Shown here: positions 4,172 to 11,305 of the stretch, in pieces | Layout: each line of letters opens with the position of its first letter | How positions within the stretch are numbered: the stretch's first letter is position 1 | Source: an uncultured Desulfuromonadales bacterium | GTDB lineage: Bacteria; Desulfobacterota; Desulfuromonadia; Desulfuromonadales; Geopsychrobacteraceae | Assembly (NCBI GenBank): GCA_947259685.1 | Contig: CAMYNC010000152.1 | Coordinates: forward strand, 1-11,305 | Length of the DNA stretch: 11,305 nt | Direction: 5' to 3' | The notes under the pieces: model-generated | What the model was told of the DNA's origin: nothing | Databases searched by the model: none | The model's input: only the letters and a program-made list of their open reading frames with translations | Translations under genes and position numbers: made by a program

Positions 4172-4218
4172 CTTTTTTCACTCGAAAATTCTATTTGCTG
4201 CAGACCCTAGAGGATGAA

Positions 4219-5289
4219 ATGAAAAACAGATATTTTCTCAGCCTGCTGGTTCTTATGATCGGCATGTTGCCAGCATCGGTATTCGGCAATGATAATTTAG
4301 TTGTCGGAACCATTGAAAGACCTCCTTTTATGTTTTATACCGACGGACAGCCATCAGGTTTTTCGGTTGAATTGTGGGAGCAGATCGCCCGAGAGATCCC
4401 CGTAACCTATCGTTGGCAGCCCCATCAACGATTTTCAGACATGGTTGATGAAACCGTTGCCGGCAGAAACAACCTGGCGATTGCCAATATCTCGATCACA
4501 GCAGAGCGTGAAAAAATTGCCGATTTTTCACAGCCGATTTTTCAATCAGGAATGGCAATTGCCGTTAAAAGTGGCGGACGCAGGTCTTTTATAAGTCTAT
4601 TTTGGGATTCGGGTATTTTATTATTTATTGCCGGCGCTTTTGTTGTCCTGCTGATCATCGCCCATATTCTTTGGTTCTTCGAAAGAAATGTGGTCGATGC
4701 GCGCCATGACTATTTTCGGGATAGCTACTTAGGCGGCGTTTGGGATGCTTTCTGGTGGGCGTTCGTCATCATGACGATGGGCGGCTTCGAGAATGAAGTG
4801 CCGCATAAAAAATTCAGTCGTTTTCTTGCGATGATCTGGATTCTGATCAGCCTGTTTTTTATCTCTACCCTGACAGCTAAAATCACCACAGCTTTGACCG
4901 TTGCTGAATTACAGACCGGGATAGAAAGTTACCGAGACCTTTCAGGGAAACGGGTTGGTGTGACCATTGGCTCGTCTCACCAGAAATTCTTATCCAGCCA
5001 TGGGATAAGTCCGCGTGGCTATGAGTCTCTGGAGCAGCTCTATGAAGATCTGAACAAGGGTAAGCTTGATGCCATAGTCGCGGACTTTCCAATTCTTTCT
5101 TATTATGCCAATCATGACGGAGCAGGTTGGTTAAAGATAGCCGGAGAGCCATTCAACCTAGAATCCTTTGGGATACTATTGCCCGAGGACTCATCCCTGG
5201 TAGAAGAAATTGATGTGGCGTTGCTTAAAATCCGGGAAAACGGATCCTACGAAAAGCTATTGAACAGATATTTTGGGGACCTGCAATGA
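4219..5289 (+). CDS. Prokaryotic ionotropic glutamate receptor-like ligand-gated channel
   Basis: A 356-aa inner-membrane protein with the GluR0-type layout. A signal peptide (residues 1-23) is followed by the first half of a family 3 solute-binding domain (about 26-118), with the ligand arginine R97 in ITAEREKIADFS. Then come TM1 (132-154), a pore loop (172-190), TM2 (199-221) and the second half of the binding domain (about 233-354). TM2 carries ISTLTAKITTALT, which resembles the eukaryotic iGluR gate motif SYTANLAAF. It probably opens a cation pore on binding a periplasmic amino acid. The filter region reads TMGGFENEVP (186-195) where GluR0 has TVGYGD, so K+ selectivity should not be assumed. 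The start is ATG 4219, four nt after AGAGGA (4209-4214); an in-frame TTG at 4195 is less likely. No operon partner is seen. Confidence 0.86.
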   Translation: MKNRYFLSLLVLMIGMLPASVFGNDNLVVGTIERPPFMFYTDGQPSGFSVELWEQIAREIPVTYRWQPHQRFSDMVDETVAGRNNLAIANISITAEREKIADFSQPIFQSGMAIAVKSGGRRSFISLFWDSGILLFIAGAFVVLLIIAHILWFFERNVVDARHDYFRDSYLGGVWDAFWWAFVIMTMGGFENEVPHKKFSRFLAMIWILISLFFISTLTAKITTALTVAELQTGIESYRDLSGKRVGVTIGSSHQKFLSSHGISPRGYESLEQLYEDLNKGKLDAIVADFPILSYYANHDGAGWLKIAGEPFNLESFGILLPEDSSLVEEIDVALLKIRENGSYEKLLNRYFGDLQ

Positions 5290-5622: not shown

Positions 5623-8472
5623 ATGGAAATTAAAGTCTGTCTCGTCATGCTGATCTCGATATTTTTCTTTACAGGCTGTAGCGAAAAGCCTGCTTCTGAA
5701 GTCGCCCCTCCAACAGAAAAGACGGCAACAACGCCAACCGCCGAGGAAAGCGAGCCTGAAAAAGAATCTCTGTCTGAACTGGCGGCCTGCCGCGAAATGG
5801 TCAAGGATGGCTTCCGGCCGATCGCCAAAACTCGCGCAGAGCGCTTTTTAGGTAAGGTTGCGGTGTTCACTGCCGAATGTCGCGGCGGTGAAAAAGCCCT
5901 GAAATATCGTTTGGCCCCCTGGGTCGACTGGGGTAACTACTGGGCGACCGGCGATGAAACTTCCAAAGGCAAAGGGCTGCTTTACAGCGGCGGGCATTTG
6001 GGCCCCAACGGTCGCGGTATCGACGGCGCCCTGCTCGACCTTGAATACGAGCGGATTGAGTTGGTCAAATTCAATCTGTTCGATAATTACACCTTTGAAA
6101 CCTATCTCGAAGGGCAGGACGCCGTCGAAGGCCCGGCGGTGAAAGTCTGGCCCGAAATGCGCTTGGCAGAAGATCATCCCCAATTTAAAGAGGTAGGCGG
6201 AGAGCAGGCACAGCTCTGCAAGGGCGACCTGATCCGTTCCCGAACCCTGACCGGGATCTGTAATGACATCAAGAACCCGGCCATGGGCGCAACCAATATG
6301 CTGTTTGCCCGCAACGTCCAGTTTGAAGAAACCTTCCCCCGCCTCGGCGGCACCGAGCTACTGCGTAACCGGCATGGTGATCGGCTTGGTCTGCTGAAAC
6401 CCGATCCGCAACTGATCAGCCGCAAGCTTTTCACCCGCAGCCAGACCAAAACAGATAAATGTGCAGAGGGCTTAGGTTTGGAGGGTGATTCTACCGACGG
6501 CCATTGTGACTATAAAAAAGCACCCTTTTTCAACGTGCTGGCGGCTTTCTGGATTCAATTCATGACCCACGACTGGTTCTCCCACCTGGATGAAGGCGCC
6601 AACCAGCCCGAATACATGCAGGTTGGCTGCGATGATCCAGCCCTCGGCTGTCGTCCCGATGATCAGATGGAGAAGGCACTGGTGGCCGAAGATAGCCCTC
6701 CTGGCAGTTTCAGTTTCCAGGGAAAGAATTATCTGAAGCGGGCGCCAAAAATCTTTAAAAACACAGTGACCGCTTGGTGGGATGCCTCACAGATCTACGG
6801 CTATGATGAAACCTCTATCAAACGCGTCAAGCGGGATACTCAAGACCCGGCCAAGCTGCTCTTGGTGCAGCAGGGTTCCCTGCCAGGGGCCGGCGAAAAA
6901 TTAGGCTATTTGCCATTGCTGGAAGCTTCCGATCCAATGAACCCGGCCTGGGCCGGCCAAGCGGCAACCGGATTTCCTGATAACTGGACTATCGGTGTGG
7001 CCTTTTACCACAATCTTTTCTCCCGCGAGCATAACGTTTTTGTCGATGCCTTCCGGGCCCAGGCAACCAAGACCCCTGAAGCCGATTCGGGGCTTCGTCA
7101 TCCAGCCAAACCTGACCAGGTCATCCGCTATAAGGATGTCAGCGATGCAGAGCTATTCGAGGTCGCCCGGCTGGTGGTTTCGGCTGAAATCGCCAAAATT
7201 CATACCATCGAATGGACCACCCAACTCCTGTACAACGAACCTCTCTACCGAGGGATGAACTCCAACTGGGGCGGCTTGTTCGAAGAGGATTCACTGGTCG
7301 CCAAGGTGCTGGAACGGATCGTGGTCAATAATTACGGAAAAACCGAAGATGTCAAACGCGCCACCCAGTGGTATTCGGTGTTTGCATCGGGGCCAGGCAT
7401 CTTCGGCCTGGGCAGTCGCGTTTATGATGACGACAGGATCTTTGCCAGAATCAACCCGAAAAAGAAAGACATCTGGAGCCTGACCAATCCCGAGCATATC
7501 AACGGCGGGGTCAACCATTTCGGCTCACCGTTTAACTTTCCTGAAGAATTCACTACCGTCTATCGGTTGCATCCGCTGGTTCCCGACCTGATTGAATACC
7601 GCGACTGGAAGAATGAGCCAAACCAGATTCGCAGCAAAATTCCGGTGGTCAAAACTTTCCGCGGCAAGGCCACTACAGCGATGCGCGAAAAGGGTCTAGC
7701 AAACTGGGCACTCAGCATGGGTCGCCAGCGACTGGGGCTGTTGACCTTGCAGAATCATGCGCAATTTTTACAGAACCTGGAGATGCCGCGGCTCAAAAGT
7801 CCGACCAAAAAGATCGACGTGGCAGCCCTTGACCTGATCCGCGACCGTGAACGAGGCATCCCAAGGTTTAACGAATTCCGTCGCCAGTATGGTTTGAAAC
7901 AGCTCACCAGTTTTGACGATTTCATAGATCAGCGGTTGCCTGAAGACTCCCCTGCCCGACTGGAACAACAGCAACTGGTCCAGACCCTGCGCGAAGTCTA
8001 CGGCCAGCATCGTTGCGATGCAGCAAAAGTCATCACTCAATCGCAGGTAAATGACGACGGGTCAGCAATCAACGACTGCCTCGGACATCCGGATGGTTCC
8101 ATGGTCGACAATGTTGAAGATATCGACACCGTGGTTGGCTGGCTGGCCGAATTTACCCGGCCGCACGGCTATGCGATATCCGAAACCCAGTTCGTGGTCT
8201 TTATCCTTAACGCCTCCCGGCGGCTGTTCAGTGACCGTTTTTTCACCTCCAGCTTCCGGCCTGAGTTCTACACCCAGCTCGGCGTCGATTGGGTGAACAA
8301 CAACGTGTCACCGCTGAAACGGGTGCTCTTGCGGACTACGCCCGAATTGGCGGAACAACTCGAACCGGTGGTTAATATTTTTGATCCCTGGGCCAGAGAT
8401 CGCGGCAGCTATTACTCGCTGGAATGGAAACCGATTCCAAGTGCCAAATCGGATCCTGCATTCAATGAATAA
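5623..8472 (+). CDS. Animal-type haem peroxidase/fatty-acid dioxygenase-like lipoprotein
   Basis: A 949-aa exported haem protein. Residues 1-19 form a lipoprotein signal (FFFTGC, lipid cysteine C19), followed by a Pro/Thr/Glu-rich linker (20-50) and an N-terminal region of about 230 residues that I do not recognise. The animal haem peroxidase domain (PF03098 type) spans about 300-880. It has distal histidine H316 in FMTHDWFSH, R468 in FSREHN, proximal histidine H650 in YRLHPLVPD, and RDRERGIPRFNEFR (740-753), the family's usual RGRDHG-like segment. Y647 sits three residues before H650, as Tyr385 and His388 do in cyclooxygenase and as in fungal linoleate diol synthases and PpoA, favouring a fatty-acid dioxygenase over a simple peroxidase. 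GAGGAG (5611-5616) six nt upstream sets the start. It is the first gene of the operon and overlaps the P450 gene. Substrate is inferred, not shown. Confidence 0.9.
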   Translation: MEIKVCLVMLISIFFFTGCSEKPASEVAPPTEKTATTPTAEESEPEKESLSELAACREMVKDGFRPIAKTRAERFLGKVAVFTAECRGGEKALKYRLAPWVDWGNYWATGDETSKGKGLLYSGGHLGPNGRGIDGALLDLEYERIELVKFNLFDNYTFETYLEGQDAVEGPAVKVWPEMRLAEDHPQFKEVGGEQAQLCKGDLIRSRTLTGICNDIKNPAMGATNMLFARNVQFEETFPRLGGTELLRNRHGDRLGLLKPDPQLISRKLFTRSQTKTDKCAEGLGLEGDSTDGHCDYKKAPFFNVLAAFWIQFMTHDWFSHLDEGANQPEYMQVGCDDPALGCRPDDQMEKALVAEDSPPGSFSFQGKNYLKRAPKIFKNTVTAWWDASQIYGYDETSIKRVKRDTQDPAKLLLVQQGSLPGAGEKLGYLPLLEASDPMNPAWAGQAATGFPDNWTIGVAFYHNLFSREHNVFVDAFRAQATKTPEADSGLRHPAKPDQVIRYKDVSDAELFEVARLVVSAEIAKIHTIEWTTQLLYNEPLYRGMNSNWGGLFEEDSLVAKVLERIVVNNYGKTEDVKRATQWYSVFASGPGIFGLGSRVYDDDRIFARINPKKKDIWSLTNPEHINGGVNHFGSPFNFPEEFTTVYRLHPLVPDLIEYRDWKNEPNQIRSKIPVVKTFRGKATTAMREKGLANWALSMGRQRLGLLTLQNHAQFLQNLEMPRLKSPTKKIDVAALDLIRDRERGIPRFNEFRRQYGLKQLTSFDDFIDQRLPEDSPARLEQQQLVQTLREVYGQHRCDAAKVITQSQVNDDGSAINDCLGHPDGSMVDNVEDIDTVVGWLAEFTRPHGYAISETQFVVFILNASRRLFSDRFFTSSFRPEFYTQLGVDWVNNNVSPLKRVLLRTTPELAEQLEPVVNIFDPWARDRGSYYSLEWKPIPSAKSDPAFNE

Positions 8473-9808
8473 GGCAGACGCCATCATGAACAAAGCTGCA
8501 GAAATTCCGACCCTGTCGACCAGGGAGGGGTTATCTTACAGTCTGGGACAGATCCTGCCCAACTACATGGGCGGCTTATTCACGCCCAATCAATTCTGGT
8601 TTGGCGTTTGGAGCAAGTTGCACCCCGACCCCTCAGCCGTCAAACTGGTCAGCAAACTGCGGAAGAAGTACCAGAGCGACTATCTTTATCTGAAGCTCTT
8701 GGGAAAAAAATCGCTGCTGGTGCTCGATCTTGAGGGGATCAAGACGATTCTCGACAATTCACCCGAGTTATTTGCCGAACCGAAAATTAAACGCCAGGGG
8801 ATGTCCTATTTTCAGCCGAACGCGCTAACGATTTCCCGCGGTGCGGAGTGGCATGAGCGACGCAAATTCAATGAGGCGGTGCTCGCTTCTGGCAAGGACA
8901 TTCATCCCCACGGCGAACACTTTCTGCAATTAATCTTTCAGGAAGTTGACCGACTGCAACTCCAGCCGGCCAAAGCGTTGGTCTGGGAGGATTTCTCGCT
9001 GCTATTCCAGCGCATAACCCTGCAAATCATTTTTGGCCAGGGCTTCACCGATATTGCTTTGACCAATGCTCTGCAGGAGTTGATGAGCACCAGTAACAGG
9101 GGATTTCTCTTGAAAAAATCGCGGAAGTTTGACGATTTTTATCGCCAACTTAACGAGCAACTCAAGCAGGCCCGTCATGGCAGCCTGGCCGAACGTTGCA
9201 GCCAGGTCCCCTCAACGGATAACACCCGGGTGGAAAATCAGGTCCCTCACTGGATATTTGCCATGGCTGACACCCTGGCCATTAATTGTGCCCGAGCACT
9301 GGCGCTGATTGCCGCCCACCCTGAGGCGGAAGAGCAGTTGCGGCAGGAACTGTCCCAAAAGGAGCTCTCCTCGGCAGCTGGCGTCAATCAATTGAACTTT
9401 TTGGAAGGCTGCGTGCAAGAAGCAATGCGACTTTGGCCAACAACACCGATGCTGGTCCGGGAAACCGTTCAGGACACTGAACTCGGCGGCGAACAAGTCC
9501 CGATAGGAACCCAGGTGATTATCCTCAACAGTTTTAATCATCGGGACCGGGAAACACACACTTTTGCAGATCGTTTTGCCCCGGAAATCTGGTCGGAGTG
9601 GCCCACGAATTACCATTTTAATCACCTCAGTAATGGCAAGCAGGTCTGTGCCGGCAAAGATCTGGCCCTGTTTATTGCCAAAGCGGTCCTGGCCCGGATG
9701 CTCGCTACCCACAGCTATCAGCTGGTGAGACCAGGGCTCTCTGCGGACGGGCCAGTGCCCTACCGCTATAATCATTTTCACCTGGAGTTTATGCGTCAAT
9801 ACCTCTGA
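8465..9808 (+). CDS. Cytochrome P450, possible partner of the haem dioxygenase
   Basis: A 447-aa P450 with no signal peptide or N-terminal anchor, hence predicted cytoplasmic. Visible motifs are WxxxR in helix C (W129 to R133), an I-helix MADT with D269 and T270, the K-helix ExxR (E319 to R322), FADRFAPEIW (367-376) in place of the PERW region, and a haem loop LSNGKQVCAGKDL with thiolate C395, where Leu replaces the usual Phe of FxxGxxxCxG. NGKQVCAGKD resembles the loop of CYP74 hydroperoxide-transforming enzymes. However, T270 is retained while CYP74 lacks it, so an ordinary monooxygenase remains possible. ATG 8465 overlaps the peroxidase stop by 8 nt, suggesting coupled translation; ATG 8486 behind AAGG is an alternative. 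No reductase or ferredoxin gene is visible nearby. Probable role: rearranging or hydroxylating the oxidised lipid made by its neighbour. Confidence 0.9.
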   Translation: MNKADAIMNKAAEIPTLSTREGLSYSLGQILPNYMGGLFTPNQFWFGVWSKLHPDPSAVKLVSKLRKKYQSDYLYLKLLGKKSLLVLDLEGIKTILDNSPELFAEPKIKRQGMSYFQPNALTISRGAEWHERRKFNEAVLASGKDIHPHGEHFLQLIFQEVDRLQLQPAKALVWEDFSLLFQRITLQIIFGQGFTDIALTNALQELMSTSNRGFLLKKSRKFDDFYRQLNEQLKQARHGSLAERCSQVPSTDNTRVENQVPHWIFAMADTLAINCARALALIAAHPEAEEQLRQELSQKELSSAAGVNQLNFLEGCVQEAMRLWPTTPMLVRETVQDTELGGEQVPIGTQVIILNSFNHRDRETHTFADRFAPEIWSEWPTNYHFNHLSNGKQVCAGKDLALFIAKAVLARMLATHSYQLVRPGLSADGPVPYRYNHFHLEFMRQYL

Positions 9809-9871: not shown

Positions 9872-10330
9872 GTGAATTCAACCGTGAACAAATTTGTTGA
9901 TATGAACCGGGAGCAGTTGGACGAAATCTACAAGAACGCCACCGCAGGAAAGGTTCCAACAACTGAGATGCGCGGCACGGCGATTGTCGCCGGCAGCCAA
10001 TTTTCTCAACTCTATGCCCGATTGGCACGGTTGCTTGCCTGGCAGGGAAAGGTGTTTGACATTTTCGCACCGCCGGATTGCGGGGTGTTGATCAATAAGA
10101 TCACCCCCTTCAGTCTCAACTTTATCGTCGCCAAGGTCTACCGGGGGGCAAGCTGGATGGACGGCAAAGAAACGATCATCATCGACTATTCCAAAACCTC
10201 CTTTTTTGCCAAGAAGATCCGCGATGAAATTCGTGAAGTCGAACCAGGGATTTACCTGGGCAAAGTCTGGTGGGGAAAGCACCGCATCCTCGATTTTGCG
10301 CTGGAGGCGATAAACGACAGTAAAGATTAA
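9872..10330 (+). CDS. Conserved 152-aa protein of unknown function in the peroxidase/P450 operon
   Basis: I cannot assign a function. The protein has no signal peptide or membrane helix. Its pattern of alternating short hydrophobic stretches, with WQGKVFD (53-59), AKVYRGASWMDGKETIIIDYS (about 86-106), RDEIREVEPGIYLGKVWWGK (116-135) and LDFALE near the end, suggests a compact beta-rich, lipocalin-like or ligand-binding fold. The layout faintly recalls GXWXG/DUF4334 proteins, but I do not claim membership. The start is GTG 9872, eight nt after AAAGGA (9858-9863); an in-frame ATG at 9902 has no SD. It lies 63 nt after the P450 gene, on the same strand and without a terminator between, so it is probably co-transcribed. 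A lipid-binding or product-handling role is a guess from context only. Confidence 0.85.
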   Translation: MNSTVNKFVDMNREQLDEIYKNATAGKVPTTEMRGTAIVAGSQFSQLYARLARLLAWQGKVFDIFAPPDCGVLINKITPFSLNFIVAKVYRGASWMDGKETIIIDYSKTSFFAKKIRDEIREVEPGIYLGKVWWGKHRILDFALEAINDSKD

Positions 10331-10382: not shown

Positions 10383-11305
10383 ATGGGTGAATTCACTCAC
10401 CAGCAGGCACTGACAATTTATGCGCAGATCAGGCCCGGGCAGCTTGGGGCTCTGCGCGAAACTCTGGCAACCATCGCCGCCGATGTCGCCGGGGACGATA
10501 CACTCTCCTTTGGCCAGTTCAGGCAGCTGCACTTCGCCAGGCTGCTGATCCTTGACGAGGCAAGACCGACCACCCCTGAGCAACAGCGCGATCTCAACAG
10601 CACTCCTATCCCCCCTCACCTGGCTCTGTTGTGTAATGTCGATGGCCCGGTGGAAAGCTTTATCAATCACCTGGCCGAGAAAGCTGGCACCGGCTTAGAC
10701 GCAATTTTTAGCCACTGCGAGGCTTACCCTCAGCCTGATCTACGCAACCTGCAGAGTCGGCGGGACTATTTGAGATACCATCAGATCAGTGAGGCGGCAT
10801 TCTACGTCAATACCATCGGCCGCAGCGTGGAGCAGATCCGCCAGGAAGCCAGGCTGCGGGAGGCAATCCAACCTTTTTTGGACGAGCATAGCTGGACGGG
10901 TCGTAGCGCTGAAGAGGTCCGTCAACAGATCATTGATTTCGTGCAAAACCAACCAGAGCTCGCTTGGGCAACCCAGCCCGCGCAGCAGCCACCTCTCTGG
11001 TGGGTAATTCGGGAAAAAGCTCAATTCATTATTTTCGCGGTACTAGGTGCCATCCTTGGCGTGTTGCTATTACCGCTGATTCTGCTGATTCTGCTGATTC
11101 TGCGAAGCAGAGAAAAGCGTGATCCGGTGGAAAATATCCGCCCATCAACCGAGCGTCTGAATTATCTGCGCTCCTTCGAAGACCATTGGGCACATAATCA
11201 ATTCAGCGCGGTCGGCCATATCAAGCCTGGAATAATCCGTCGAATCACTCTGCAGGTAGCGCTTGCAGGCGTCAATTTCGGCGTTCGTCACCTGTTCAAC
11301 AAGGG
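10383..11305 (+). CDS. Membrane-anchored conserved protein of unknown function, 3' end beyond the window
   Basis: The frame is open from ATG 10383 to the window edge: 307 codons with no stop. AAGGA (10371-10375) seven nt upstream supports the start. The N-terminal domain (residues 1-200) contains LHFARLLIL (49-57), a LLCNVDGP segment (82-89), GLDAIFSHCEAYP (104-116) and AFYVNTIGR (139-147). A Pro/Trp-rich stretch leads to one long hydrophobic segment (213-240), then a basic RSREKR turn. A second domain begins with FSAVGHIKPG (274-283) and RHLFNKG at the edge. From memory, homologues continue with another HFAR-like block, so the protein may hold two copies of one alpha/beta domain around a membrane hairpin. 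No enzymatic function is known to me. It follows the 152-aa gene by 52 nt in the same operon, so it may serve the lipid-oxidation pathway at the membrane. Confidence 0.87.
   Translation, partial: MGEFTHQQALTIYAQIRPGQLGALRETLATIAADVAGDDTLSFGQFRQLHFARLLILDEARPTTPEQQRDLNSTPIPPHLALLCNVDGPVESFINHLAEKAGTGLDAIFSHCEAYPQPDLRNLQSRRDYLRYHQISEAAFYVNTIGRSVEQIRQEARLREAIQPFLDEHSWTGRSAEEVRQQIIDFVQNQPELAWATQPAQQPPLWWVIREKAQFIIFAVLGAILGVLLLPLILLILLILRSREKRDPVENIRPSTERLNYLRSFEDHWAHNQFSAVGHIKPGIIRRITLQVALAGVNFGVRHLFNK
11076..11102 (+). repeat. Three tandem copies of a 9-bp unit inside the membrane protein gene
   Basis: CTGATTCTG occurs three times in a row without change, in frame, encoding Leu-Ile-Leu repeats at the end of the predicted membrane segment. 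Gain or loss of a unit would change the helix by three residues without a frameshift. Confidence 0.85.

What the first reader, a model, noticed from the sequence alone, without database searches (positions are those of the whole stretch)
5623..9808. Split two-gene analogue of oxylipin synthases: haem dioxygenase-like lipoprotein plus P450
An animal-type haem peroxidase and a P450 are encoded in overlapping genes. Fungal Ppo proteins fuse these two domains to oxygenate fatty acids and rearrange the hydroperoxide, and animals pair COX with CYP5/CYP8. The same logic as separate bacterial genes, with two further unknown genes, suggests an undescribed bacterial oxylipin pathway. The host looks like an anaerobe, which makes an O2-consuming lipid pathway unexpected; it could serve oxygen defence or signalling at oxic interfaces.
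Basis: partly seen in the sequence, partly recalled or inferred. Interest (0 to 1): 0.78.

Follow-up and report, generated by a model that had tools for sequence, protein, structure and literature searches.

The report
Bacterial fatty-acid dioxygenase paired with P450
In a bacterium related to Desulfuromonadales, a gene for a plant-like fatty-acid oxygenase sits beside a P450 gene that stands where relatives often carry a catalase-like gene, which hints at bacterial versions of the two-step routes that make lipid hormones in plants, fungi and animals.

Summary
The two genes are real and conserved as a pair. The 949-aa lipoprotein is an alpha-dioxygenase-type enzyme: a family profile hits only rice and Arabidopsis alpha-dioxygenase in the PDB at E<=1e-5, and haem ligands, catalytic Tyr and carboxylate-binding residues are kept in 80-81 of 81 relatives. 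The P450 keeps an acid-alcohol pair and lacks the fungal HxC signature. In 83 related loci the neighbour of the dioxygenase is catalase-related in 21, a P450 in 7, never both; 37 have none of the partners searched. P450-paired dioxygenases are not one clade (AU p 2.7e-6). The cluster also holds either G4-DyP-catalase-like genes or two RoxA-like di-haem genes. G3 models as a calycin-like barrel. Three of nine distant loci have catalase-dioxygenase fusions.

Best reading: a modular bacterial oxylipin-type cluster with a P450 in the usual catalase slot. Substrate, product and hand-over are unproven; the dioxygenase looks exported, the P450 cytosolic. The sister genome has a haem-copper oxidase gene, so O2 use is not paradoxical. 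New variant of a known kind.

The parts
5623..8472 (+). DOX: alpha-dioxygenase-type haem oxygenase, 949 aa, N-terminal lipoprotein signal (residues 1-19) and about 190 extra N-terminal residues of unknown fold
   Evidence: Pfam An_peroxidase 1.4e-67; PDB 4kvj E 6e-58, 4hhr E 4.9e-57; profile hits only alpha-DOX at E<=1e-5
6568..6570 (+). distal haem His316 (rice alpha-DOX H157)
   Evidence: alignment; H in 80 of 81 rows, 1 gap; numbering from PMC8720084 passages
7201..7218 (+). His527 and Thr532 (rice H311 carboxylate contact, T316 alpha-carbon positioning)
   Evidence: 81 of 81 rows each; roles from PMC8720084 passages
7561..7572 (+). catalytic Tyr647 (rice Y379) and proximal haem His650 (rice H382)
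   Evidence: 81 of 81 rows each; the PDB sequence 4kvl carries Phe at the same column
8221..8223 (+). Arg867 (rice R559, carboxylate contact)
   Evidence: 81 of 81 rows
8465..9808 (+). P450, 447 aa (start perhaps 8486), no N-terminal membrane or export signal seen by eye
   Evidence: Pfam p450 7.6e-32; homologue starts in A3
9269..9274 (+). I-helix Asp269-Thr270 acid-alcohol pair (motif F-A-M-x-D/E-T, M and T not invariant)
   Evidence: alignment A3 of 38 rows: acidic residue, then Thr in 90% or more
9647..9649 (+). haem-thiolate Cys395 in loop NHLSNGKQVCAGK
   Evidence: invariant in 38 of 38 rows of A3
9872..10330 (+). G3: 152-aa calycin-like beta-barrel protein, recurrent member of the cluster
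10383..11305 (+). G4 (cut by the contig end; first possible ATG 10362): protein with a central hydrophobic, membrane-like stretch, 434 aa in L001; fold unresolved
   Evidence: L001 homologue, alignment A2, low-confidence model

Best explanation
The window carries the front part of a modular fatty-acid oxygenation cluster. SHOWN by sequence: an alpha-dioxygenase-type protein with a lipoprotein signal and the six tested alpha-DOX active-site residues; an adjacent P450 of a subfamily that recurs next to it; a third conserved protein whose model is a calycin-like barrel; in the nearest relative, L001, then G4, a DyP-type peroxidase and a second catalase-like protein. SHOWN by comparison: the P450 stands in the place held by a catalase-related protein in 21 relatives, and the gene sets are mixed and matched. 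INFERRED: the dioxygenase uses a tyrosyl radical to put O2 on a fatty acid (predicted at C2, giving a 2-hydroperoxide or its one-carbon-shorter aldehyde), and the neighbouring haem protein (P450 here, catalase-related elsewhere) turns that hydroperoxide or its breakdown product into a stable oxylipin, or disposes of it; G3 may carry the lipid; the second gene set carries out further oxidation. Odds: dioxygenase is a fatty-acid oxygenase about 0.75; partner acts on its product about 0.5; signalling rather than disposal about 0.35.
For: Alpha-DOX type: PDB; residues. Pair conservation. Exchange of partner: 21 catalase-related, 7 P450 of two types, 0 both; P450-paired dioxygenases not one clade, p-AU 2.7e-6. 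Second set: G4-DyP-catalase-like in 25 of 35 partner-bearing loci (3 cut by contig ends), RoxA-like pair in 10, never both; P450 and catalase-related loci each occur with either. The RoxA-like proteins have two CxxCH motifs in each frame longer than 400 aa; the L042 pair matches RoxA-like_Cyt-c and the di-haem peroxidase model, the type to which PMC4496055 (passages) assigns P. aeruginosa 10S-DOX and 7,10-diol synthase. Catalase domains are fused to distant alpha-dioxygenases in L086, L094, L095. G3 barrel model.
Against: No substrate or product is known. The dioxygenase has an export or lipoprotein signal while the P450 shows none, in the four loci with this P450 (by eye); 7 of 21 catalase-related partners also lack a signal (heuristic starts). 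The P450 keeps an acid-alcohol pair, which suits a reductase-fed monooxygenase at least as well as a hydroperoxide-using enzyme. 37 of 83 loci have none of the searched partner genes beside the dioxygenase although at least 1.5 kb downstream is held, so a partner is not obligatory. Only 6 of 120 listed P450 relatives, the window's own included, share a contig length with one of 119 listed dioxygenases (lists cut at 120). The protein is about 300 aa longer than plant alpha-DOX. L004 has the P450 upstream and no G3. L061, without a partner by my rule, has a catalase-related hit on the opposite strand. The second gene set of the L042 pair: one of the two passes the di-haem peroxidase cut-off (176 against 150), the other falls just short (146.6).
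Confidence: 0.55

Rival explanations
1. Conventional monooxygenation: the P450 hydroxylates the same lipids, or the aldehyde made by the dioxygenase, fed by cellular ferredoxins; it is not a hydroperoxide isomerase and only shares a pathway.
For: Acid-alcohol pair kept in the aligned homologues; best PDB relatives shown are monooxygenases such as sugiol synthase, CYP19 and BM3; no row named as CYP74, CYP8 or CYP5 among the 60 shown of 177.
Against: The place is filled by catalase-related proteins, which need no reductase (established knowledge), in 21 of 28 loci with either; no redox-partner gene among the Pfam matches in the window.
Confidence: 0.25
2. Lipid-peroxide defence: the cluster oxidises and then destroys free fatty acids or peroxides at the cell envelope; no signal molecule is made.
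For: Several peroxide-handling haem proteins side by side: DyP, two catalase-related proteins, di-haem peroxidase-like proteins. PA2077 expressed without its partner is harmful in P. aeruginosa (PMC4496055 passages).
Against: A dioxygenase that makes hydroperoxides is an odd first step for defence; the fatty-acid-binding residues tested are invariant.
Confidence: 0.2
3. Other lipid substrate: the dioxygenase-P450 set acts on terpenoids, hopanoids or other long-chain lipids rather than free fatty acids.
For: RoxA-like neighbours (rubber-oxygenase superfamily) in 10 loci; GMC oxidoreductase neighbours in 8 loci.
Against: Equivalents of the carboxylate contacts H311 and R559 are kept in 81 of 81; the L042 RoxA-like pair is far below the NCBIfam cut-offs for RoxA, RoxB and RoxC.
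Confidence: 0.15
4. Chance neighbours or assembly artefact.
For: The window is one 11-kb contig.
Against: Same order in L001 and in a 3.66-Mb contig of Candidatus Tenderia electrophaga; co-divergence.
Confidence: 0.02

Closest known systems
Plant and cyanobacterial fatty-acid alpha-dioxygenase (alpha-DOX, PIOX; CalDOX, LepDOX)
   Same: Equivalents of the haem ligands, catalytic Tyr, carboxylate-binding His/Arg and Thr are conserved; best sequence match in the PDB.
   Different: About 300 aa longer with an N-terminal extension and insertions, lipoprotein signal, neighbouring P450; activity not shown.
Fungal linoleate diol synthases / Ppo (DOX-P450 fusions)
   Same: A haem dioxygenase of the same superfamily beside a P450.
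   Different: Two genes, not one; nearest solved relatives are alpha-DOX; QxC at the P450 Cys loop instead of the HxC reported for LDS (PMC13049297 passage).
Nostoc 10S-DOX with a separate catalase-related hydroperoxide lyase, and a cyanobacterial catalase-haem dioxygenase fusion
   Same: Catalase-related protein coupled to a haem dioxygenase; the same coupling is in 21 relatives of the window and in fusions L086, L094, L095.
   Different: In the window a P450 takes that place. Known to me from passages of PMC13049297 and PMC11719350; no sequence of these was compared.
Pseudomonas aeruginosa oleate diol synthase (PA2077/PA2078)
   Same: Tandem RoxA-like di-haem proteins stand in 10 relatives, two of them with this P450 (L004, L084).
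   Different: Not in the window or in the L001 contig; relation inferred from family models and CxxCH spacing (213-242 residues against 245 and 235 in the paper), not from a direct comparison.
COX with CYP5/CYP8 (prostanoids)
   Same: Haem dioxygenase plus P450 logic.
   Different: COX matches in the PDB only at E 0.03 or worse; no row named CYP5 or CYP8 among the 60 shown for the P450.

Membership tests
fatty-acid alpha-dioxygenase | closest homology to alpha-DOX within the peroxidase-cyclooxygenase superfamily | tested here: met
   PDB profile search: 3 of 3 sequences at E<=1e-5 are rice/Arabidopsis alpha-DOX; single-sequence search alpha-DOX 6e-58, lactoperoxidase 2.1e-5, COX 0.033 or worse. 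Only PDB chains were compared; no Ppo or 10S-DOX sequence was at hand.
fatty-acid alpha-dioxygenase | catalytic Tyr with distal and proximal His | tested here: met
   Tyr and proximal His 81 of 81, distal His 80 of 81 with 1 gap
fatty-acid alpha-dioxygenase | H311, R559 (carboxylate) and T316 | tested here: met
   81 of 81 each; roles from PMC8720084 passages
fatty-acid alpha-dioxygenase | usual length of about 580-650 aa without added domains (recalled; PDB chains 621 and 652 aa); typical, not known to me as defining | tested here: not met
   949 aa, homology begins near residue 205. For this reason I call it alpha-dioxygenase-type, not a proven member.
fatty-acid alpha-dioxygenase | oxygenation of fatty acids at C2 | not testable with these tools
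   needs an assay
fungal LDS/Ppo | dioxygenase and P450 in one polypeptide | tested here: not met
   two frames, stop at 8470-8472
fungal LDS/Ppo | HxC at the P450 haem-thiolate loop (PMC13049297 passage) | tested here: not met
   QVC in the window; Gln at that position invariant in A3, 38 rows
fungal LDS/Ppo | dioxygenase domain in the LDS clade | not tested
   no LDS reference sequence was fetched
CYP74 / CYP8A1 / CYP5A1 hydroperoxide- or endoperoxide-isomerising P450s | closest P450 relatives are of these families | tested here: inconclusive
   none so named among the 60 rows shown of 177 PDB hits
CYP74 / CYP8A1 / CYP5A1 hydroperoxide- or endoperoxide-isomerising P450s | loss of the I-helix acid-alcohol pair (recalled) | tested here: not met
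   D/E followed by T/S in alignment A3
dioxygenase plus catalase-related partner system | catalase-related gene or domain beside the dioxygenase | tested here: not met
   P450 in that place in the window; catalase-related in 21 of the 83 loci classed
P. aeruginosa-type oleate diol synthase | tandem RoxA-like di-haem proteins | tested here: not met
   not found in the window's genes or on the L001 contig; found in 10 relatives

The most novel reading that the evidence does not exclude
A general bacterial oxylipin machine with two interchangeable parts: an exported alpha-dioxygenase-type enzyme makes a fatty-acid hydroperoxide, the neighbouring haem enzyme (P450 or catalase-related, exchanged more than once) sets what it becomes, a second set (G4, DyP and catalase-like, or a di-haem pair) sets the final product, and a calycin-like protein carries it. 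The P450 form would be a bacterial, split counterpart of the dioxygenase-P450 logic of fungi and animals, possibly producing lipid signals in Desulfuromonadales, Tenderia, Nitrosomonas, methanotrophs and halomonads.
Probability: 0.3. Interest if true: 0.82.

Novelty: new variant of a known kind. Interest (0 to 1): 0.62.

Why it matters
Several lipid-hormone routes of animals, plants, corals and fungi couple a dioxygenase to a second haem enzyme that is either a P450 or a catalase relative (established knowledge; in part PMC13049297, passages). Here one bacterial cluster shows both options in the same place, exchanged more than once, and relatives exist in named isolates (Methylomonas, Nitrosomonas, Halomonas, Alteromonas; Roseateles as one without a partner gene). 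That makes it directly testable whether the two partner types do the same job, what the product is, and whether bacteria outside Pseudomonas use such lipids.

Tried and rejected
Chance adjacency: rejected. Ppo/COX as nearest kin: not borne out, but no Ppo sequence was compared. A CYP74-like reading from the CAGKD letters near Cys395 (a resemblance I recalled): set aside, since the family keeps D/E-T and the PDB relatives shown are monooxygenases; that none is named CYP74 in the rows shown is no exclusion. Strict-anaerobe paradox: weakened by a COX1 oxidase gene in the sister genome G001; no bd oxidase match there, in a MAG whose completeness is not told. Structure of G4: model at pLDDT 55 from 8 sequences, not searched further. 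Literature: among the papers listed by searches (10 of 15 listed) and 73 no title or shown abstract is about an alpha-dioxygenase-P450 gene pair in bacteria, and 24 and 71 listed none; I saw listings and passages only, and the library lacks most subscription papers, so absence from print is not shown. Rows dropped: L010 and L028 (broken or short frames) from the residue table and the 81-row tree; L090 as a duplicate of L004; L081-L083 and L086-L089 from the 83-locus count. In one search L052 was scored 'none' because of an overlapping start and was corrected by hand to P450b. The AU tests used 43 rows and groups named after the first tree was seen. Searched partner families were those of the query set only; other neighbours of the 37 partnerless loci were not followed. 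Other, more distant P450 matches occur away from the dioxygenase in several genomes (G005, G010, G012, G013, G014) and were not followed.
Full report
WHAT IS THERE. The window is a whole 11,305-base contig. The + strand carries the dioxygenase gene DOX (5623-8472, 949 aa, lipobox FFFTGC), a P450 (8465-9808, or from the ATG at 8486), G3 (9872-10330) and G4 (from 10383 or 10362, cut by the contig end). Upstream lie an aldehyde ferredoxin oxidoreductase, a LarA-type racemase, a DUF2853 protein and a glutamate-receptor-like channel. The nearest relative, L001, is a Desulfuromonadales MAG with 86% identical DOX and the same order, continuing with full-length G4, a DyP-type peroxidase (TIGR01413, 129 bits against a cut-off of 100.5) and a catalase-like protein.

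THE DIOXYGENASE. Against the PDB the single sequence best matches rice and Arabidopsis alpha-dioxygenase (E 6e-58 and 5e-57), then lactoperoxidase (2e-5), with COX at 0.03 or worse; a profile of 11 family members hits only the three alpha-dioxygenase sequences at E<=1e-5. With the rice numbering of PMC8720084 (passages; the PDB chain is offset by 3), distal H157, catalytic Y379, proximal H382, carboxylate contacts H311 and R559 and T316 map to H316, Y647, H650, H527, R867 and T532. In 81 aligned relatives these are kept in 81 of 81, the distal His in 80 with one gap. By hand on the alignment, F549, F552, I553, A556, W315 and F375 are also identical, while M325 and A331 differ (Leu and Ser). 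So a fatty-acid oxygenase of alpha-dioxygenase type is the best reading; activity is unproven and the 300 extra residues are unexplained.

THE P450. The family search gave 1203 proteins at E<=1e-20 among 7999 candidates scored. In 38 aligned members the Cys is invariant, the I-helix reads F-A-(M)-x-[DE]-[TS], ExxR is kept in nearly all rows, and the residue two before the Cys is an invariant Gln. The minireview PMC13049297 (passages) says that all fungal LDS P450s keep HxC there. The nearest PDB rows shown are monooxygenases. Hence it does not fit the LDS signature, nor show the acid-alcohol loss that I recall for CYP74.

THE PAIR IS CONSERVED. DOX of this subfamily is rare: one strong match in 395 genomes of the phylum of G001, plus two at E 3e-4 and 8e-4; 1 of 176 in its class; in the class of G003, 7 of 369 match at E<=1e-10, 3 of them at full length. 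The P450 at E<=1e-30 is in 2 of the same 369, both beside DOX: G003, which was the centre of the draw, and G650 = Candidatus Tenderia electrophaga, where the two matches lie 22 bases apart. In the class of G001 it is in 1 of 176, G001 itself, again the centre.

EXCHANGEABLE PARTS. Of 299 pattern matches in the genome collection 196 encode a relative; the best 80 were kept; with L084, L085 and the window, 83 loci were classed. Beside DOX: catalase-related protein 21, this P450 4, a second P450 type with an I-helix TGSGT 3, GMC oxidoreductase plus large cytochrome c 7, GMC alone 1, contig end within 1.5 kb 10, none of these 37. No locus has both a P450 and the catalase-related protein. Six of the seven P450s and 19 of 21 catalase-related genes lie directly between DOX and G3; L004 has the P450 upstream and no G3, L042 and L053 have a longer G3 further down. 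G3 or its long form is in 34 of the 35 loci of the P450, catalase-related and GMC/cytochrome classes and in none of the 37. A second set, whose position varies (in halomonads it is upstream on the other strand, in Nitrosomonas beyond the GMC genes), is G4-DyP-catalase-like in 25 of those 35 (three cut by contig ends) or two RoxA-like di-haem proteins in 10, never both; P450 and catalase-related loci each occur with either. The catalase-related protein of L079 has Pfam Catalase E 7e-11, and its best PDB matches are 3e4w, an 'uncharacterized protein' that I recall as a mycobacterial catalase relative (E 1e-4), and coral allene oxide synthase-lipoxygenase 1u5u (E 2e-3). On the DOX tree the P450 label needs three changes, and holding the four P450-paired DOX proteins together is rejected (p-AU 2.7e-6; with the second P450 type 5e-13; groups chosen after seeing the tree). 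L004 with P450 is sister to L039 with the catalase-related gene (SH-aLRT 99). Together with the co-divergence I infer repeated exchange or loss around an old pair; the direction is not settled.

DISTANT RELATIVES. Four further genomes (L086-L089) and five plasmid loci (L091-L095, five opened of 20 records) carry alpha-dioxygenases about 28-36% identical. L086, L094 and L095 are catalase-dioxygenase fusions (Pfam Catalase 3.5e-7, 4e-6, 1.4e-6). L095 and L092 have RoxA-like neighbours; L087 has GMC, a large cytochrome c and a RoxA-like piece; the Calothrix plasmid L091 has a GMC gene; Streptomyces L093 has a P450 with one gene between. L088 has none of the searched families within 6 kb, and L089 is cut off inside the gene. 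A cyanobacterial catalase-haem dioxygenase fusion is already in print (PMC11719350, passage), so the coupling itself is known; the P450 alternative at the same place is what I did not see described in the listings of searches.

COMPARTMENTS AND OXYGEN. The lipobox Cys column is Cys in 47 of 81 DOX rows; of the others printed, most show a hydrophobic N-terminus by eye. The P450s show none; 14 of 21 catalase-related partners have an N-terminal hydrophobic or lipobox segment and 7 do not, with heuristic starts. The product would have to cross the inner membrane in the P450 loci: this is the weakest link of the two-step reading. The sister genome G001 holds a haem-copper oxidase subunit I gene (E 1.3e-147) and no bd oxidase match, so oxygen use is plausible.

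VERDICT. Observation confirmed, interpretation partly supported: a real, conserved, split dioxygenase-P450 pair, of alpha-dioxygenase rather than COX type by the PDB comparison, set in a modular haem-enzyme cluster. The closest known are bacterial and plant alpha-dioxygenases, dioxygenase-catalase systems, fungal dioxygenase-P450 fusions and the P. aeruginosa diol synthases (PMC4496055, passages). New variant of a known kind; interest 0.62.

Noticed in passing
window 4195-5289 (+): Glutamate-receptor-like channel: SBP_bac_3, Lig_chan and Ion_trans_2 matches in one protein, with TMGGFE where K+ channels have a TVGYG-type filter (recalled).
   Followed up: no
   Followed up: partly
L042, L051, L052, L053, L067, L070, L074, L078, L084, L004: Tandem RoxA-like di-haem cytochromes near the dioxygenase (Alteromonas, Thioalkalivibrio, Tenderia and others), probably of the P. 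aeruginosa diol-synthase type.
   Followed up: partly
L038, L044, L054, L062, L068: The five Nitrosomonas loci fetched have dioxygenase, GMC oxidoreductase, a large di-haem cytochrome c, G3, G4, DyP and catalase-like genes together, but no match to the P450s or the small catalase-related partner.
   Followed up: partly
L093:727-5650: Streptomyces plasmid: alpha-dioxygenase, alpha/beta hydrolase, a P450 (26% identical to the window's) and an FAD-linked oxidase in a row.
   Followed up: no
P0134: A relative of the window's P450 (588 aa) that also carries PF07366 and PF12680, SnoaL-like by recall.
   Followed up: no
L046, L051, L052: A second P450 type in the same place with I-helix TGSGT, lacking the acidic residue, so perhaps not an O2-activating P450.
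   Followed up: partly
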